Source: Ischnura elegans
Lineage: Eukaryota > Arthropoda > Insecta > Odonata > Coenagrionidae
Length of the DNA stretch: 64,000 nucleotides
Assembly (NCBI RefSeq): GCF_921293095.1
Contig: NC_060251.1
Coordinates: 99,496,566 to 99,560,565 of the forward strand
Reading direction: 5' to 3'
Program-made: the position numbers and the translations under genes
In this document: piece by piece, positions 17,601 through 22,859 of the stretch
Layout of the letters: the number at the start of each line of letters is the position of its first letter
How positions within the stretch are numbered: position 1 is the first letter of the stretch
The notes under the pieces: model-generated
What the model was told of the DNA's origin: nothing
What the model saw: only the letters and a program-made list of their open reading frames with translations
Database searches by the model: none

Positions 17601-20600
17601 TCTGATCGCAAACGAGTGGCAGCCCTCACATCAGCAATGGCAAGAGACATCTCTTCTAAACTGGTGTAGACATCTGCACGGAGTTCCCTCAAAGTAGGGT
17701 CCCAAGCACACACCTAGGACGAGGAAAAAAGTTAGCAAAATAATGGGGGATATTTTCGTTGCACAATCACAACAAAAACTATATACACAGGGTAATTATA
17801 AAGGAATGGTGCGATTACAGTAATTTGTGCTTTGGCTCACAATGAGTCCCGATCTCACACCTAGTGATTTTTTCTTCTGTGGGTACATCAAGAGTGTTGT
17901 AAATAGAAAAAACATTTGCGATCTAAACCTTTTAATGAACCGGAATAATGATGCAATGACAACCATAGACAAAAAAATTTAAACTAATGTTTCGACAGAA
18001 GTTGAGTATCGCTTGGACATTGGTCGAGAGACTAAGGGCACACAAATTTAAATTAATCAATTAGGGGGGGTGTCTATAATAATGTGATGTGATTTTTGGA
18101 CCCCTTCAACCCCCTTAGCGAGATTTGGCTTGACCTCCAAATCTCTCCTAAGATTGTTCAAAATGCGTGTTTTCAGTGTAAATACATTGATATATTCTTC
18201 ATCGCATTGGATTTATTAAAAAAATTAATTATTTTTATTTAAGATTATTCTGCTTCACTAAAATATAGTATAGTTGAAATCATCTTTTGTCTCCTGGAAT
18301 TTTCCATGGATATCTTCTTCGTATGAGATTTTTAAATAGCGTGTCAGCAACCATTAATTTTTGTCCAGTGCAGATATACTAAGATTCCAATTTTATACCA
18401 TTTCTTGCAGAAAAATCGTGATACTTGCCCCCCCTTCCACACGTGAGACTGGGTGAGAATCTTGACCTCCTCCTCCCCCTAAACACCTCACGTAATTAAT
18501 GGATTATGTAAAACAACTGTTTGAACAACAAATTCAAAAAATAAAAATTACAATAGTTTTCATCAAAACCATGTTTAAAACTGCACCATTCTTTTAAGAT
18601 AACCCTTTATTTAACTGGAATATGATTACATCAGGCTGTTACCTCAATAACTCGACCGAGAACTGCGATGGCATTGTGGTAATCATGGTACCGAAGCAAT
18701 TCCTTAGCACGTGCTATGTCCTCCTTGATAGGATATATTCTGGCATGACCATTGTAGGCTTCCTCATTCTCAGGGTCATGTAATAACTGTAAATGAAGAT
18801 ATAAATCAGTCTATTTACTTATAAATTATACACAAAACAAACATATTACATCTAAATCCAAGATATCTTCAAAACTTCTTTGAACAAAGCTGAAGGAATG
18901 CATTCACTCATCATAATCTTGGACTGCAATTCATCCCTAATGACTACCTATGAACTTTGTTCATTTTGATTATTATTTATGTCATACCTGCCCTTGCTAC
19001 CTGACTTATTTTACCTGCTAAACTCATTCCCTTTGAACCAGGCCCAACAAATGCAGTATTAGTCACCCTAACTTGTCTTCTTACTAGGCACCTTTATCTC
19101 TTCCTTACCCACATATGTATAGAAATTAGCTCTTATATCACAAATGGATAACATATATTGTGTTGAATGGAGAACAGGTATCTATTTGAGGGGGATGTTG
19201 AAAGAGTAGGTAAATAAATGTCAAATAGAGATCATGACGTCAACATAGGGAATGAGGCATCATGCCAAACTATGTTCTGAACATAAAAAAATAAAAGTAT
19301 GACATAGACACTCAGGATATAGAAGTTTCTAAAAGTTTCTAAGCATTCTTCCCCCTAGCATGGTTTTCAACATCCCCTTCCTGCCCAGTGCTCACTCCAT
19401 CTCAACCCTATGTCTCCACCGTATCTTAGCAAGAAGCTTCATCTCCTCACCAACCTCAGCAACTTTCCCACTTTTCTATCCCCTTCCACACGCACAGTTG
19501 CGACCAGTAAGGAAATTTGGTATTTGCTAATCACACTATAGCAACTATGTTTTCCAAAACCCCAAATGCTAAAAACTTATAGATATAACACCTACACATA
19601 TCAACAGTGTACTCCTTAGTAGTCGCTTAAAAGCCTCGAAAGTCTACTGAGAAACAATGGCAAACAATAAATTCTATGTTCACTCTCCTTAGTTCACCAT
19701 TGGTCAATTCTTCTAGATTTTATTTTAAAACAACAACTAAACTGAAATCCAATCTCATACAATACCGTATAATGGAGAGCGGATGAAAATAACATTACGT
19801 GGACGAAAAATTTCCAATTTAAACTATCTGAACCCACTGACGGCCTCAGATCATTCGGTGAAATTCGCCAATATTTGCTATTGCAATTAAAACTCATCTC
19901 ACGCCACAACATTAAATGAAGGGATACTTACCACTCTTTCATACTCCTTTTGAGACTCGTCTAAATCACCCTGCTTTAGCAGAATATTGGCTCTCTGCAA
20001 CCTAGCCTGGAAGTTAAACACCCAATTATGCAATAGAAAGATAGTGGGCATCCTTATTTATATATACGCCGACAATACAGCTAGACGGTACTCACAGGAA
20101 TAAAATCAGGTTTCAGCTCAAGCACTTTATCCACATCTGAAAGAGCAACTTTTGATTTTCCTAAAGCTAAATATACTGTGCCTCTTTTAAAATAAGTTAA
20201 ATGGTTATTCGGGTCGCCCTCTGAAATAGAAAGGTAAAATAAATTTTCAGCGACGAATCAATTGATGAATAATTACACGTTGATCGGAAAACTTACCCAC
20301 AGCCGCATGATAATGAGAAAGGGCATCTTGTAACTGTCCCCGAGAAAGTAAATCTCTTCCCATTTCGAGGTGCTTGTTGACATCATCCTGAGAAGTGCCC
20401 CAAGATTCTACAAGGGAAAAAGTTCACACGTTTTCGAACAACTTCGTTATATTACTAACAAAAATATCATAAACTTAAAAAGTGTACATCTATAAAGATC
20501 AAGATAAAATGCAAGCACAAAAATGAAAGTTAACACTGACCTGTTATCATCAACTGAACCAAAACTATAAAGAACCATTTCTCAATTCGCCTAAAGTTAA

Positions 20601-20628
20601 GTAGAAAAGAATGAATAACCATTGCCAT
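2627..20628 (-). CDS. DNAJC3: DNAJC3 / p58IPK, ER-lumenal TPR and J-domain co-chaperone (10 exons)
   Basis: Family role: ER-lumenal co-chaperone that binds misfolded clients through TPRs, stimulates BiP through its J domain, and was first described as an inhibitor of PKR/PERK. Minus-strand exons in order: 20628-20541, 20407-20297, 20220-20096, 20006-19932, 18786-18643, 17713-17532, 15084-14934, 10184-9992, 8556-8388, 2888-2627. All junctions are GT-AG, the phases agree, and the exons sum to 1500 bp (499 residues plus stop; human is 504). The start is ATG at 20628, with a second in-frame Met two codons on. A hydrophobic stretch (WFFIVLVQLMIT) at about residues 18-29 looks like a signal peptide. 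TPR-type helices run from about 31 to 385. The J domain starts RRDYYKILDVKRSATKKEII (390-409) and keeps HPD at 420-422. The C-terminus FQFKFHFN is the family signature. Introns are full of transposons but no exon is damaged. An ERSE lies upstream. Confidence 0.96.
3004..3117. mobile_element. Short hAT-type MITE (CAGGGGCGGATC termini)
   Basis: The ends are inverted: CAGGGGCGGATC on the left and GATCCGCCTATG on the right. The flanking 8-mers TTTGAACC and TTCACACC agree at 5 of 8 positions, as expected for an old duplication. It holds a long G run and shares internal sequence with the element at 57729-57940. It lies in the last DNAJC3 intron. Confidence 0.55.
3156..3549. mobile_element. MITE of the CAGGGCTGGG family
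   Basis: The left end CAAGGCTGGGCAAAATAC and a right end running into CCCAGCCC are inverted repeats. The interior is rich in GTATTT/AAATAC-type repeats, as in the better copy at 36248-36672. The flanking 8-mers ACCCATAG and ACCCACGA are similar but not identical, so this copy looks older. Confidence 0.55.
5178..5575. mobile_element. Inverted-repeat MITE, possibly piggyBac-like
   Basis: Near-identical inverted termini share AACGTTGCGTGAACGCAAC (left at about 5194-5217, right at about 5537-5560). Outside them, TTAACCC on the left faces GGTAA on the right, which would fit a decayed piggyBac-type end with a TTAA duplication. It lies inside the 3.65-kb hAT-like element, so it jumped in later or came along with it. 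The superfamily is a guess. Confidence 0.45.
7134..7649. repeat. Long foldback (arms about 240 bp, loop about 45 bp)
   Basis: The arm 7134-7375 is the imperfect reverse complement of 7419-7649. The outer pair is CGAAGGGTCGCTAATCCGCG against CGCGGATTAGCGACCCTTCG, and the inner pair includes GTTAAC against GTTAAC. Open frames crossing it on both strands are products of the symmetry, not genes. It is inside the hAT-like element at 4280-7930. Confidence 0.8.
8557..9991. other. DNAJC3 intron 8, no clear feature
   Basis: Intron between exons 8 and 9. No protein similarity is recognised in its open frames. A stretch near 9475-9520, read on the minus strand, resembles an interspersed CCTGAAGATGATG...GAAACCCGGGTCGT motif whose origin I cannot name. 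Confidence 0.4.
10337..11299 (-). mobile_element. LINE fragment, minus strand, split by a hAT MITE
   Basis: This is the reverse complement of the 3' half of the LINE at 43780-44765, including the conserved stretch that gives WSVALYGAE there. It runs from the 3' tail (TATTAT-rich, about 10337) to about 11299 and is interrupted at 10417-10726 by a younger hAT MITE. It lies in the intron between DNAJC3 exons 7 and 8, beside a second copy in the opposite orientation (11419-11905). Confidence 0.7.
10417..10726. mobile_element. 310-bp hAT MITE with exact 8-bp target duplication
   Basis: The ends are CAGTGGCTCCCAACC and GGTTGGGAACCACTG, the classic hAT-type terminal inverted repeat. CTCTAGAA flanks both sides (10409-10416 and 10727-10734). 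The interior repeats GGGTGCCG-like words and has no coding capacity. It sits inside a LINE fragment, so the LINE is older. Confidence 0.9.
11419..11905 (+). mobile_element. LINE 3' fragment, plus strand
   Basis: The reading frame includes KSLIWSVALYGAETWTLRRE, a C-terminal signature of reverse-transcriptase ORFs of RTE-like non-LTR elements, and runs on to a 3' tail of ATAATAATA. It is a 5'-truncated copy of the family at 43780-44765, oriented against the neighbouring copy at 10337-11299. Confidence 0.75.
12243..13105. mobile_element. hAT-type element with nested C-rich MITE pieces
   Basis: The left end CAGGGGAGGATTC and right end ATTCCACCCCTG are inverted. The flanks ACTGCTAT (12235-12242) and ACTGTTCT (13106-13113) agree at 6 of 8. 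Inside are further MITE-like ends, such as CCTGGCTACGCCACTG at about 12942-12957, so the stretch is a nest of several small insertions. Confidence 0.5.
14208..14901. mobile_element. Pogo/Tigger-like MITE (TA target)
   Basis: The termini are CAGTAAAACCTCT and AGAGGTTTTACCG, flanked by TA on both sides, as in pogo/Tigger members of the Tc1-mariner group. The interior repeats GAGGTT and AAAGAGG words. No transposase is seen. It ends 32 bp from the donor site of DNAJC3 exon 7 (exon end 14934). Confidence 0.7.
15085..17531. other. DNAJC3 intron 6, unidentified repeats
   Basis: The intron contains the perfect-arm hairpin at 15625-15749. An ATTATTATTA stretch near 15930 resembles the tail of a retroelement. 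The span 15950-16900 reads like repeat-derived DNA without a frame I can name. The open frames at 15601-15852 come from the hairpin's symmetry. Confidence 0.4.
15625..15749. repeat. 125-bp hairpin with 58-bp arms
   Basis: The arm 15625-15682 pairs almost perfectly with 15692-15749 across a short loop (AAATCGAAA). The inner arm sequence is CTCCATTTCTCCTTCCAACG against CGTTGGAAGGAGAAATGGAG. TTTGATTAAATA occurs on both sides (about 15583 and 15750), perhaps a target duplication. Confidence 0.85.
17842..18050 (+). pseudogene. mariner-type DDE transposase C-terminal fragment
   Basis: The frame reads SPDLTPSDFFFCGYIKSVV and, after one stop codon, ends with TNVSTEVEYRLDIGRET. The (S/T)PDLTPxDFFLWGxxK block and EYRLD ending are typical of mariner-like transposases common in arthropods. 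Only the last part survives. It is in the DNAJC3 intron between exons 5 and 6. Confidence 0.7.
18787..19931. other. DNAJC3 intron 4, mostly featureless
   Basis: A C-rich stretch at about 19340-19480 resembles, in minus orientation, a diverged copy of the LINE 3' part at 10337-11299 (shared pattern around TTTTCAACATCCCC). Otherwise nothing is recognised. Confidence 0.35.
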
Positions 20629-21548
20629 GATATTACGCCGAATAATATTCCTCAACTGACAACGTCTCTATAAGTAACAGACAACTTGGCCGACATAACA
20701 TCCTCTCAACAGAAACCAACACAACAGTCAGCTTTACATCTCGTCAGTCCAAGTCGTGAACGTTCGTGGTTCGCGTTCATTGGCCATAAGCATTGAAGGA
20801 AATAATTGACGAACTAAAATACAATTTCGCGGCATATCCGAACACCATTACCACAGAGAATGGCTATAATTCTAAGACCGTGGCTATAATCTTGGCCATT
20901 ACCTTGATCATTTACTATTCTAGACGCAAGATTTAAAACATGAAAGCTATAAATTAATTGGCGCCGCTGAAAATTTATTTTAATATACTCTTTTCATTTA
21001 ATGTCGATAAAATTATTTAATCCTTACAGTTGTTTCAAAATACTGTGTAATGAGTCTCTGTAAATTGAGCCTTATAAAAGAATATCCCAATTAGAAAAAA
21101 AAATGTTTAAAAATGATTTTTAATCATTTCAAATAATTATAAAATGAAAATGTCATAAGATGGGTAAATTCGTGACTTTTCAATATTTTTATTTAATGCA
21201 TAATAAATTGCCCTTTTAAAGTTTAGTATCATATTGTTTTATTTTGTTGATTACTTTTATATGGATATATAGGAAGTAGTGACTTATTTATTTGCATTAA
21301 AATTTTATTTCTCGTAGAAATACGATATGCGAATTATTATTTCAAAACAGTTGCAAAATTATTTTCACTACACTTTAAAATTTTACATGTTTGGAAATAG
21401 TTGGACATTTTTAAAAATAATTTCAAAATCCTCAAATAAATTTCAAATAGTTCATAATATTCTCATAATCGCTATGGCATCATGGGTTGATTTTCCTTTT
21501 TTTGCCCCCCAAATAATTGCTTGCCTCAAATCCATTCACCTGTTTAAA
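20629..21548. other. DNAJC3 5' flank and intergenic DNA
   Basis: The first 150 bp should hold the 5' UTR and promoter of DNAJC3, including the ERSE at 20765-20783. No TATA box is obvious. Beyond about 20900 the DNA is very AT-rich, without frames or repeats I can name. Confidence 0.45.
20765..20783 (-). promoter_or_regulatory. ER stress response element (ERSE) upstream of DNAJC3
   Basis: On the minus strand the sequence reads CCAATGAACGCGAACCACG, an exact match to CCAAT-N9-CCACG. It lies about 137 bp upstream of the DNAJC3 ATG in the gene's own orientation. In animals this element binds NF-Y and ATF6/XBP1 and drives unfolded-protein-response genes; p58IPK is a known UPR target in mammals. 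Function here is inferred from motif and position. Confidence 0.75.
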
Positions 21549-21649: not shown

Positions 21650-21692
21650 CCTAGTTCTAAAGCTATCTTCTTTTTCAGAACTGGATTAATAT

Positions 21693-22221
21693 CCCAGTGA
21701 GAAATGGGTGGTGGAATCCACGTGGAAATGTAACGTGGATACCACGTGTTTTTGGTCGTGGAATCAACGTGGAAATTTGGTGGAAAAATTAAAACAGCAG
21801 TAGGTGCTGCCCTGAAACATTCTTATACATTACCATGGCAATGCATAAGAATGTATAAAAATTTGAAACAGGTTTATACAATTTTTTCATAGGGGATACC
21901 ATCATTTTCTGCTCCACCATCAGGCTGTCAGTTGAAAAATAAACATATCTAATACAGAAATATTACATTCATGTCATTTATCCTGAATTTTCCCTGTGGG
22001 TCCAGTTTGAATATGATTATCTAGAACATATCTTCTCAAGACATCTTGTAGATATCAGAAAAGGGGAACATTCAGAAGCCTACAAAATGTCTGGAAGCTA
22101 TTACAAAATATTTTATGGATATTTTATGCTATGATGATCCTTTATCTCATCTATGAAATATTGTCCACGTTACATTTCCACCTAATTTCCACGTGGATTC
22201 CACCACCCATTTCTCACTGGG
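21693..22221. mobile_element. 529-bp MITE with long inverted termini
   Basis: The left end CCCAGTGAGAAATGGGTGGT and right end ACCACCCATTTCTCACTGGG are perfect inverses, and the similarity runs on through GGAATCCACGTGGAAAT. ATAT flanks both sides, a 4-bp duplication or an extended TA. Several CACGTGG words lie in the termini. No coding frame. Confidence 0.75.
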
Positions 22222-22859
22222 ATATGTTTTCACAAAAGCATAAGATCCCTCCTCGCATAGACCCTACGTACTAGTTCAGAAGTTCACATGGGCATTTATA
22301 CATGCACACAATTTGCTTAGCCTTCATATCCTGTGGGGCTCTCATGAGTTCAAGGTTTATGATTCCTGGCCCAAGATTATCACTATCGAGCCATCACTCT
22401 TATGCTTGCTCAGCGGAGATTCTCTTATAGTATGCCAACTGTGGCAATGATCATCATGCCAGTGATTGGAAATGCCCTCAGCACTTGATGGAACTTGCAT
22501 GGCTGGCAAACGTAGTGCCTATTGATCTCTTGTCATGTTCTCCCATCTCTAGATTGAGATTCCGATGCCCTGGTGTTAAATTAAGACCTGCTGCCTGCTG
22601 CTATTGAGGTGAACGGATGAGCAAGAAAAACTTTTCTTCTCTAATAATTACTTTAATCATAAGTTTTCTTTGATTAAACTCTTTAGACTTTGAAAGCATA
22701 TATCTAAAGTTATATCTTTTACTTCATTTAATTAAATTATACTCTGAATTCTTTAAATTAAAATACATATTTATGCAATTCAAAACGTCATATAATTATC
22801 ATATGCAGTTTTAGATTAACACTCCCTCCTAGGCCTTAACGAAGTTACTACTACATGTA

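What the first reader, a model, noticed from the sequence alone, without database searches (positions are those of the whole stretch)
20765..20783. Exact ERSE upstream of DNAJC3
The minus strand reads CCAATGAACGCGAACCACG, with the exact 9-base spacing of the mammalian ERSE, in the gene's orientation and about 137 bp before the ATG. Because p58IPK is a UPR gene in mammals, this points to a conserved NF-Y plus ATF6/XBP1 input in this lineage.
Basis: partly seen in the sequence, partly recalled or inferred. Interest (0 to 1): 0.7.

Follow-up and report, generated by a model that had tools for sequence, protein, structure and literature searches.

The report
Real stress-response switch before DNAJC3
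The DNA just before this animal's DNAJC3 gene carries the same two-part stress switch that mammals use, and the same switch with the same exact spacing sits before several other protein-folding genes in its genome, so it is very probably real rather than a chance match, although it has not been tested in the living animal here.

Summary
Confirmed. CCAAT-N9-CCACG lies exactly at 20765-20783 on the minus strand, in the orientation of DNAJC3/p58IPK, with 136 bp between it and the ATG at 20628. One motif in 64 kb is weak alone (5 of 100 shuffles). The decisive evidence came from the same genome (1.72 Gb). Within 450 bp before the anchor (usually the ATG) of 17 ER/UPR genes, exact ERSEs occur in 4: DNAJC3, GRP94, CALR, PDIA6. 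The published form CCAC(G/A) occurs in 6 (adding HYOU1 and a DERL gene); a one-mismatch form in BiP and SDF2L1; 9 of 17 have none. Nine control genes have none. Only the 9-base spacing is used: 6 hits at N9, 0 at the 40 other spacings from N0 to N40. Without DNAJC3, 0 of 3000 shuffles reach the observed counts. ATF6, XBP1 and NF-YA/B/C candidates exist. A mammalian-type ERSE regulon is the best explanation. XBP1 lacks the ERSE and carries an exact UPRE instead. Not shown: ER-stress induction, the DNAJC3 start site, conservation in relatives (none available), the lineage itself. New member of a known kind.

The parts
20765..20783 (-). ERSE, CCAAT-N9-CCACG (CCAATGAACGCGAACCACG); with two flanking bases GGCCAATGA it also fits the NF-Y consensus RRCCAATSR (consensus recalled)
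20779..20783 (-). CCAAT half-site, predicted NF-Y site
   Evidence: NF-Y binding inferred from the published ERSE model (PMC6448932, PMC11282107 passages)
20765..20769 (-). CCACG half-site, predicted ATF6/XBP1 site
   Evidence: binding inferred
20654..20659 (-). TCAGTT, initiator-like (consensus recalled); candidate DNAJC3 transcription start region about 31 bp before the ATG (guess, not mapped)
20541..20628 (-). DNAJC3 exon 1, ATG plus hydrophobic N-terminus
20297..20407 (-). DNAJC3 exon 2
20096..20220 (-). DNAJC3 exon 3
19932..20006 (-). DNAJC3 exon 4
18643..18786 (-). DNAJC3 exon 5

Best explanation
The motif is a working ER stress response element (ERSE) of the mammalian type in the proximal promoter of DNAJC3. 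NF-Y sits on CCAAT. When misfolded protein accumulates in the ER, cleaved ATF6 and/or spliced XBP1 joins it on CCACG, which the 9-base spacer places at the right distance, and DNAJC3 transcription rises with that of GRP94, CALR, PDIA6, HYOU1, a DERL gene and probably BiP and SDF2L1. Shown here: the motif, its position, its recurrence with fixed spacing before ER-chaperone genes of the same genome, and candidate genes for the factors. Inferred: occupancy, stress induction and the DNAJC3 start site.
For: Exact ERSE in 4 of 17 ER/UPR upstream windows and CCAC(G/A) form in 6 of 17, against 0 of 9 control genes. At N9 there are 6 CCAAT-Nk-CCAC(G/A) hits; at the 40 other spacings N0-N40 there are none. 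Leaving out DNAJC3, exact in 3 of 16 genes against a shuffle mean of 0.0053, 0 of 3000 shuffles reaching 3; genome-rate expectation 0.0115, P about 2.5e-7. The four exact motifs lie with their upstream edge 135-165 bp before the ATG. In all 58 gene loci L031-L088, exact ERSEs occur at three places only: the GRP94, CALR and PDIA6 promoters. RRCCAATSRN7CCACG has 82 matches in 1.72 Gb, and three are the DNAJC3, GRP94 and CALR promoters. A processed BiP retrocopy begins about 203 nt before the BiP ATG, about 44 bp downstream of BiP's imperfect ERSE, which suggests a promoter-proximal site there. Candidates found for NF-YA, NF-YB, NF-YC, ATF6 (offsets) and XBP1. Human DNAJC3 has an ERSE at -233 and PDIA6 at -157, both listed as XBP1/ATF6 targets (PMC6111088 Table 1, section read; that study also accepts one mismatch). 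C. elegans dnj-28/DNAJC3 is up 6.7-fold with the xbp-1s transgene (PMC11282107, passages).
Against: No expression, ChIP or start-site data; no related species. Nine of 17 ER/UPR windows have no ERSE even with one mismatch in CCACG (MANF, DNAJB11, PDIA3, SEL1L, CRELD-like, CANX, SEC61G, DNAJC10, XBP1), although four human counterparts are listed with one (DNAJB11, CANX, PDIA3, XBP1). Stretches fetched near P4HB, SYVN1, KDELR and SEC61A also show none, though their promoters were not pinned down. The 79 other RRCCAATSR-ERSE sites were not identified; the reversed pattern gives 29, so chance could explain many. A second refined pattern, CCAATSRN6ACCACG, has 88 matches against 63 for its reversal, little genome-wide excess. 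The CCAC(G/A) variant was adopted after I had seen the one-mismatch hits. Controls are few, taken from loci that happened to be held, and five of nine are anchored near, not at, an ATG.
Confidence: 0.86

Rival explanations
1. Chance match: a CCAAT and a CCACG happen to lie 9 bases apart in an otherwise ordinary promoter.
For: 5 of 100 shuffles of the 64-kb window contain an exact ERSE; the genome holds 2754 exact matches, and the listed ones include recurring repeat-like sequences.
Against: Expected 0.0007 in this promoter; 1 of 5000 promoter shuffles; co-occurrence in GRP94, CALR and PDIA6 with N9-only spacing, 0 of 3000 shuffles.
Confidence: 0.05
2. Basal NF-Y (CCAAT-box) promoter element only: NF-Y drives constitutive expression and the CCACG half is not used by ATF6/XBP1 here.
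For: CCAAT boxes without a CCACG partner at N9 occur in other ER windows such as PDIA3 (three) and MANF (one).
Against: The fixed N9 spacing to CCAC(G/A), 6 against 0 at 40 other spacings, is not explained by NF-Y alone.
Confidence: 0.05
3. The CCACG half is read by another bZIP factor (a CREB3/OASIS-type protein, for example), so the element is ER-related but not an ATF6/XBP1 site.
For: Factor identity cannot be read from 5 bases; no binding or knock-down evidence was available (sequence tools only).
Against: ATF6 and XBP1 candidates exist in the genome and the NF-Y spacing is that published for ATF6/XBP1.
Confidence: 0.04

Closest known systems
Mammalian ERSE (CCAAT-N9-CCACG) of HSPA5, DNAJC3, PDIA6
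   Same: Sequence, exact 9-base spacer, promoter-proximal, same target genes (DNAJC3 and PDIA6 in human Table 1 of PMC6111088; human GRP94 and CALR ERSEs and action in either orientation recalled).
   Different: XBP1, DNAJB11 and CANX lack it here but are listed with it in human; HYOU1 has the ERSE form here, a UPRE in human; BiP has three same-strand CCAATs, only one of them with a one-mismatch partner at N9.
C. elegans hsp-4/BiP promoter elements
   Same: Same pathway and factors; a TGACGTG-type site also occurs here, at XBP1 and SEC61G.
   Different: The worm elements deviate: ATTGG-N6-CCACA plus a TGACGTGT site (PMC6448932 passages); here the canonical N9 ERSE is kept.
UPRE (TGACGTGG)
   Same: Present exactly in 2 of 17 windows of this genome, XBP1 (-41, inverted) and SEC61G (-246).
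   Different: Not the element at DNAJC3, which has no TGACGTG within 450 bp.

Membership tests
ERSE (type I) | CCAAT half-site | tested here: met
ERSE (type I) | CCACG half-site exactly 9 bases downstream | tested here: met
   spacing control
ERSE (type I) | Promoter-proximal position upstream of an ER-stress gene's start site | tested here: inconclusive
   136 bp before ATG; start site not mapped
ERSE (type I) | Shared with other ER-chaperone genes of the same genome | tested here: met
   exact in GRP94, CALR, PDIA6; absent in 9 of 17 even with one mismatch
ERSE (type I) | NF-Y and ATF6/XBP1 genes present | tested here: met
   (exon-level matches; NF-YA and ATF6 short)
ERSE (type I) | NF-Y plus ATF6/XBP1 binding | not testable with these tools
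   needs ChIP or gel shift
ERSE (type I) | ER-stress induction lost on mutation | not testable with these tools
   needs reporter or RNA data
ERSE-II | ATTGG-N1-CCAC(G/A) | tested here: not met
   0 of 17 ER windows, DNAJC3 included
UPRE | TGACGTG(G/A) | tested here: not met
   absent within 450 bp of the DNAJC3 ATG

The most novel reading that the evidence does not exclude
The composite ERSE code (NF-Y, fixed 9-base spacer, ATF6/XBP1) is an ancient bilaterian arrangement that this invertebrate keeps as a chaperone regulon, while its XBP1 and a translocon gene use the NF-Y-independent UPRE; the ERSE at mammalian XBP1 and the deviating elements of C. elegans would then be lineage-specific rewiring of one ancestral code.
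Probability: 0.4. Interest if true: 0.6.

Novelty: new member of a known kind. Interest (0 to 1): 0.45.

Why it matters
It gives a genome-internal, statistically clean sign that the mammalian ERSE grammar, spacing included, operates in an animal that does not look like a vertebrate (lineage not proven), and it names a small target set that one tunicamycin RNA-seq experiment would test. It also shows how a single promoter motif can be checked without expression data or relatives: by testing its spacing across the gene's pathway partners in the same genome.

Tried and rejected
Repeat-borne motif: not supported, the promoter stretch matches only itself. The MITE-like element at 21689-22225 holds CCACGTGG but no exact ERSE and lies 0.9 kb or more upstream; not part of the finding. 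ERSE-II and ERSE-26: 0 of 17 ER windows. Bacterial promoter scan: irrelevant to a eukaryote. Telomere motif as a lineage clue: one internal (TTAGG)6, uninformative. DNAJC3 retrocopies that would hint at its start site: none with the 293-bp promoter/exon-1 query. Cross-matching by eye the 82 refined ERSE sites with the matches of SYVN1, KDELR, SEC61A, CANX, SEC61B, SEC61G, CRELD-like, HERPUD1 and LMAN1: none within 100 kb. A variant pattern with A before CCACG showed little genome-wide excess (88 against 63).

ER genes queried whose promoter was not counted: P4HB, SYVN1, KDELR, SEC61A (stretches fetched; no ATG exon recognised; no ERSE or one-mismatch form in them); a TXNDC5-like gene (locus L064 scanned, none; start not identified); PDIA4 and DNAJB9 (no gene assigned); PPIB (ambiguous among cyclophilins); SEC61B, HERPUD1, ERO1, SEC63, LMAN1 (located, upstream not fetched). 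Held loci not used as controls: the DnaJ locus L056 and the BiP retrocopy L033.

Literature for arthropod or invertebrate ERSEs (listings): of what they listed I opened a shrimp paper that mentions ERSE and tests a UPRE (PMC3634759, passages) and two bee papers that look for the mammalian consensus in other promoters (PMC11942726, PMC8586346, passages), besides the worm paper PMC6448932 (passages). No arthropod ERSE regulon appeared in these listings, which cover open-licence PMC papers only; one search returned nothing. Searches looked for DNAJC3/p58IPK ERSE papers.

Full report
Observation. The minus strand at 20765-20783 reads CCAATGAACGCGAACCACG, an exact CCAAT-N9-CCACG, the only one in the window; 5 of 100 dinucleotide shuffles of the window contain at least one. 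The DNAJC3 ATG is at 20628, with 136 bp between motif and ATG, same orientation. Exons E1-E5 joined by me match human and mouse DNAJC3 chains at E 1.1e-47 and 2.3e-46; an engineered consensus TPR protein ranks first at 1.5e-49.

Test in the same genome. The window lies in a held 1.72-Gb assembly. Exact ERSEs number 2754 in it (reversed-pattern control 1162; the listed part of the hits shows recurring repeat-like sequences), or about one per 626 kb. I located ER/UPR genes with human protein queries and read 450 bp upstream of the anchor of 17 of the 30 or so considered; the rest are named in Tried and rejected. Anchors are ATGs with these exceptions and doubts: DNAJC10 is anchored at an out-of-frame ATG inside its first recognised exon; HYOU1's ATG exon appears to start at a splice acceptor, so its promoter lies further up; SDF2L1 is anchored at the second of two in-frame ATGs. 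Exact ERSEs: DNAJC3 (-155), GRP94 (-165, inverted), CALR (-156, inverted), PDIA6 (-135). CCACA forms: DERL (-248, inverted), HYOU1 (-318). One mismatch in the CCACG half: BiP (-266), SDF2L1 (-53). None: MANF, DNAJB11, PDIA3, SEL1L, CRELD-like, CANX, SEC61G, DNAJC10, XBP1. Controls (two HSC70, HSP90, four DnaJ genes, NF-YB, NF-YC): 0 of 9; four are anchored at an ATG and five a few bases off one or near the first recognised coding exon. Across the 58 gene loci L031-L088, exact ERSEs occur only at the GRP94, CALR and PDIA6 promoters.

Statistics. CCAAT-Nk-CCAC(G/A) in the 17 windows: 6 at k=9 and 0 at each of the other 40 spacings from 0 to 40. With one mismatch allowed in CCACG (16 windows, before XBP1 was added) there are 8 at k=9 and at most 2 at any other k from 0 to 30. 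Without DNAJC3 (16 genes): exact in 3 (shuffle mean 0.0053), CCAC(G/A) in 5 (0.019), up to one mismatch in 7 (0.154); 0 of 3000 dinucleotide shuffles reach any of these. The genome rate predicts 0.0115 exact hits, P about 2.5e-7 for three or more. The three exact hits all come from the first seven other ER genes I chose; the nine added later gave no exact hit and two CCACA hits. The CCAC(G/A) consensus is published (PMC6448932 passages), but I adopted it after seeing the one-mismatch hits; the exact-only result does not depend on it. For DNAJC3 alone, 1 of 5000 shuffles of its promoter gives an exact ERSE.

Refined patterns. Adding the recalled NF-Y consensus, RRCCAATSRN7CCACG, gives 82 sites in the genome (reversed control 29), three of which are the DNAJC3, GRP94 and CALR promoters. 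CCAATSRN6ACCACG, shaped on the four exact motifs, gives 88 sites, those four included, against 63 for its reversal, so there is little genome-wide excess of that form.

Start site. BiP has a near-identical processed retrocopy that keeps the 5'UTR. Gap-free homology begins about 203 nt before the BiP ATG (the computed alignment, with gaps, begins 16 nt further up), about 44 bp downstream of BiP's imperfect ERSE, with two further CCAATs above it. A retrocopy can be 5'-truncated, so this is a hint, not a mapped start. By analogy DNAJC3 probably starts downstream of 20765; an initiator-like TCAGTT lies at 20659-20654. This is inference.

Factors. Exon-level matches exist for NF-YA (81% over about 36 residues), NF-YB, NF-YC and ATF6 (61% over 44) (offsets), and for XBP1 (72% over 32), whose bZIP exon was read. 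The XBP1 stretch has no CCAAT in its 1,500 bp, about 1 kb of it upstream of the ATG, but an exact inverted UPRE TGACGTGG at -41; SEC61G has one at -246. In human, XBP1 is listed with an ERSE at -78 (PMC6111088 Table 1, section read). So the chaperone side looks mammal-like, and the XBP1 promoter does not.

Mechanism. In the published model NF-Y on CCAAT allows ATF6 or XBP1s to act on CCACG (PMC11282107 and PMC6448932 passages). The strict N9 spacing here is what that model predicts and what an NF-Y-only or chance account does not. Worm DNAJC3 (dnj-28) is up 6.7-fold with the xbp-1s transgene, and human DNAJC3 is listed with an ERSE at -233.

Limits. No expression, binding, start-site or relative data.

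Verdict. Very probably a real ERSE, part of a set of ERSEs on ER-chaperone genes of this genome: a new member of a known kind, of moderate interest for the evolution of UPR promoters.

Noticed in passing
window 21689-22225: MITE-like element with perfect 41-bp terminal inverted repeats rich in CCACGTGG/AACGTGG, about 0.9 kb upstream of the ERSE.
   Followed up: partly
window 20739, 20701, 20696 (minus strand): Three upstream ATGs between ERSE and DNAJC3 ATG: a start-stop ATGTAA, a 22-codon and a 14-codon uORF; they matter only if transcription starts above them.
   Followed up: partly
L033 (G000:C13:17196522-17199893): Recent-looking processed retrocopy of BiP that keeps the 5'UTR and so hints at BiP's start site.
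   Followed up: partly
L099 (G000:C1:39155840-39157339), reverse strand: XBP1 promoter without any CCAAT but with an exact inverted UPRE TGACGTGG at -41; TGACGTGT also lies, by my reading, just inside intron 1.
   Followed up: partly
L098 (G000:C12:47166560-47167459): Exact UPRE TGACGTGG 246 bp before the SEC61G ATG.
   Followed up: no
G000:C2:7998620-8000001: Two identical ERSE-like sites as an inverted pair 1.36 kb apart, perhaps in a transposable element.
   Followed up: no
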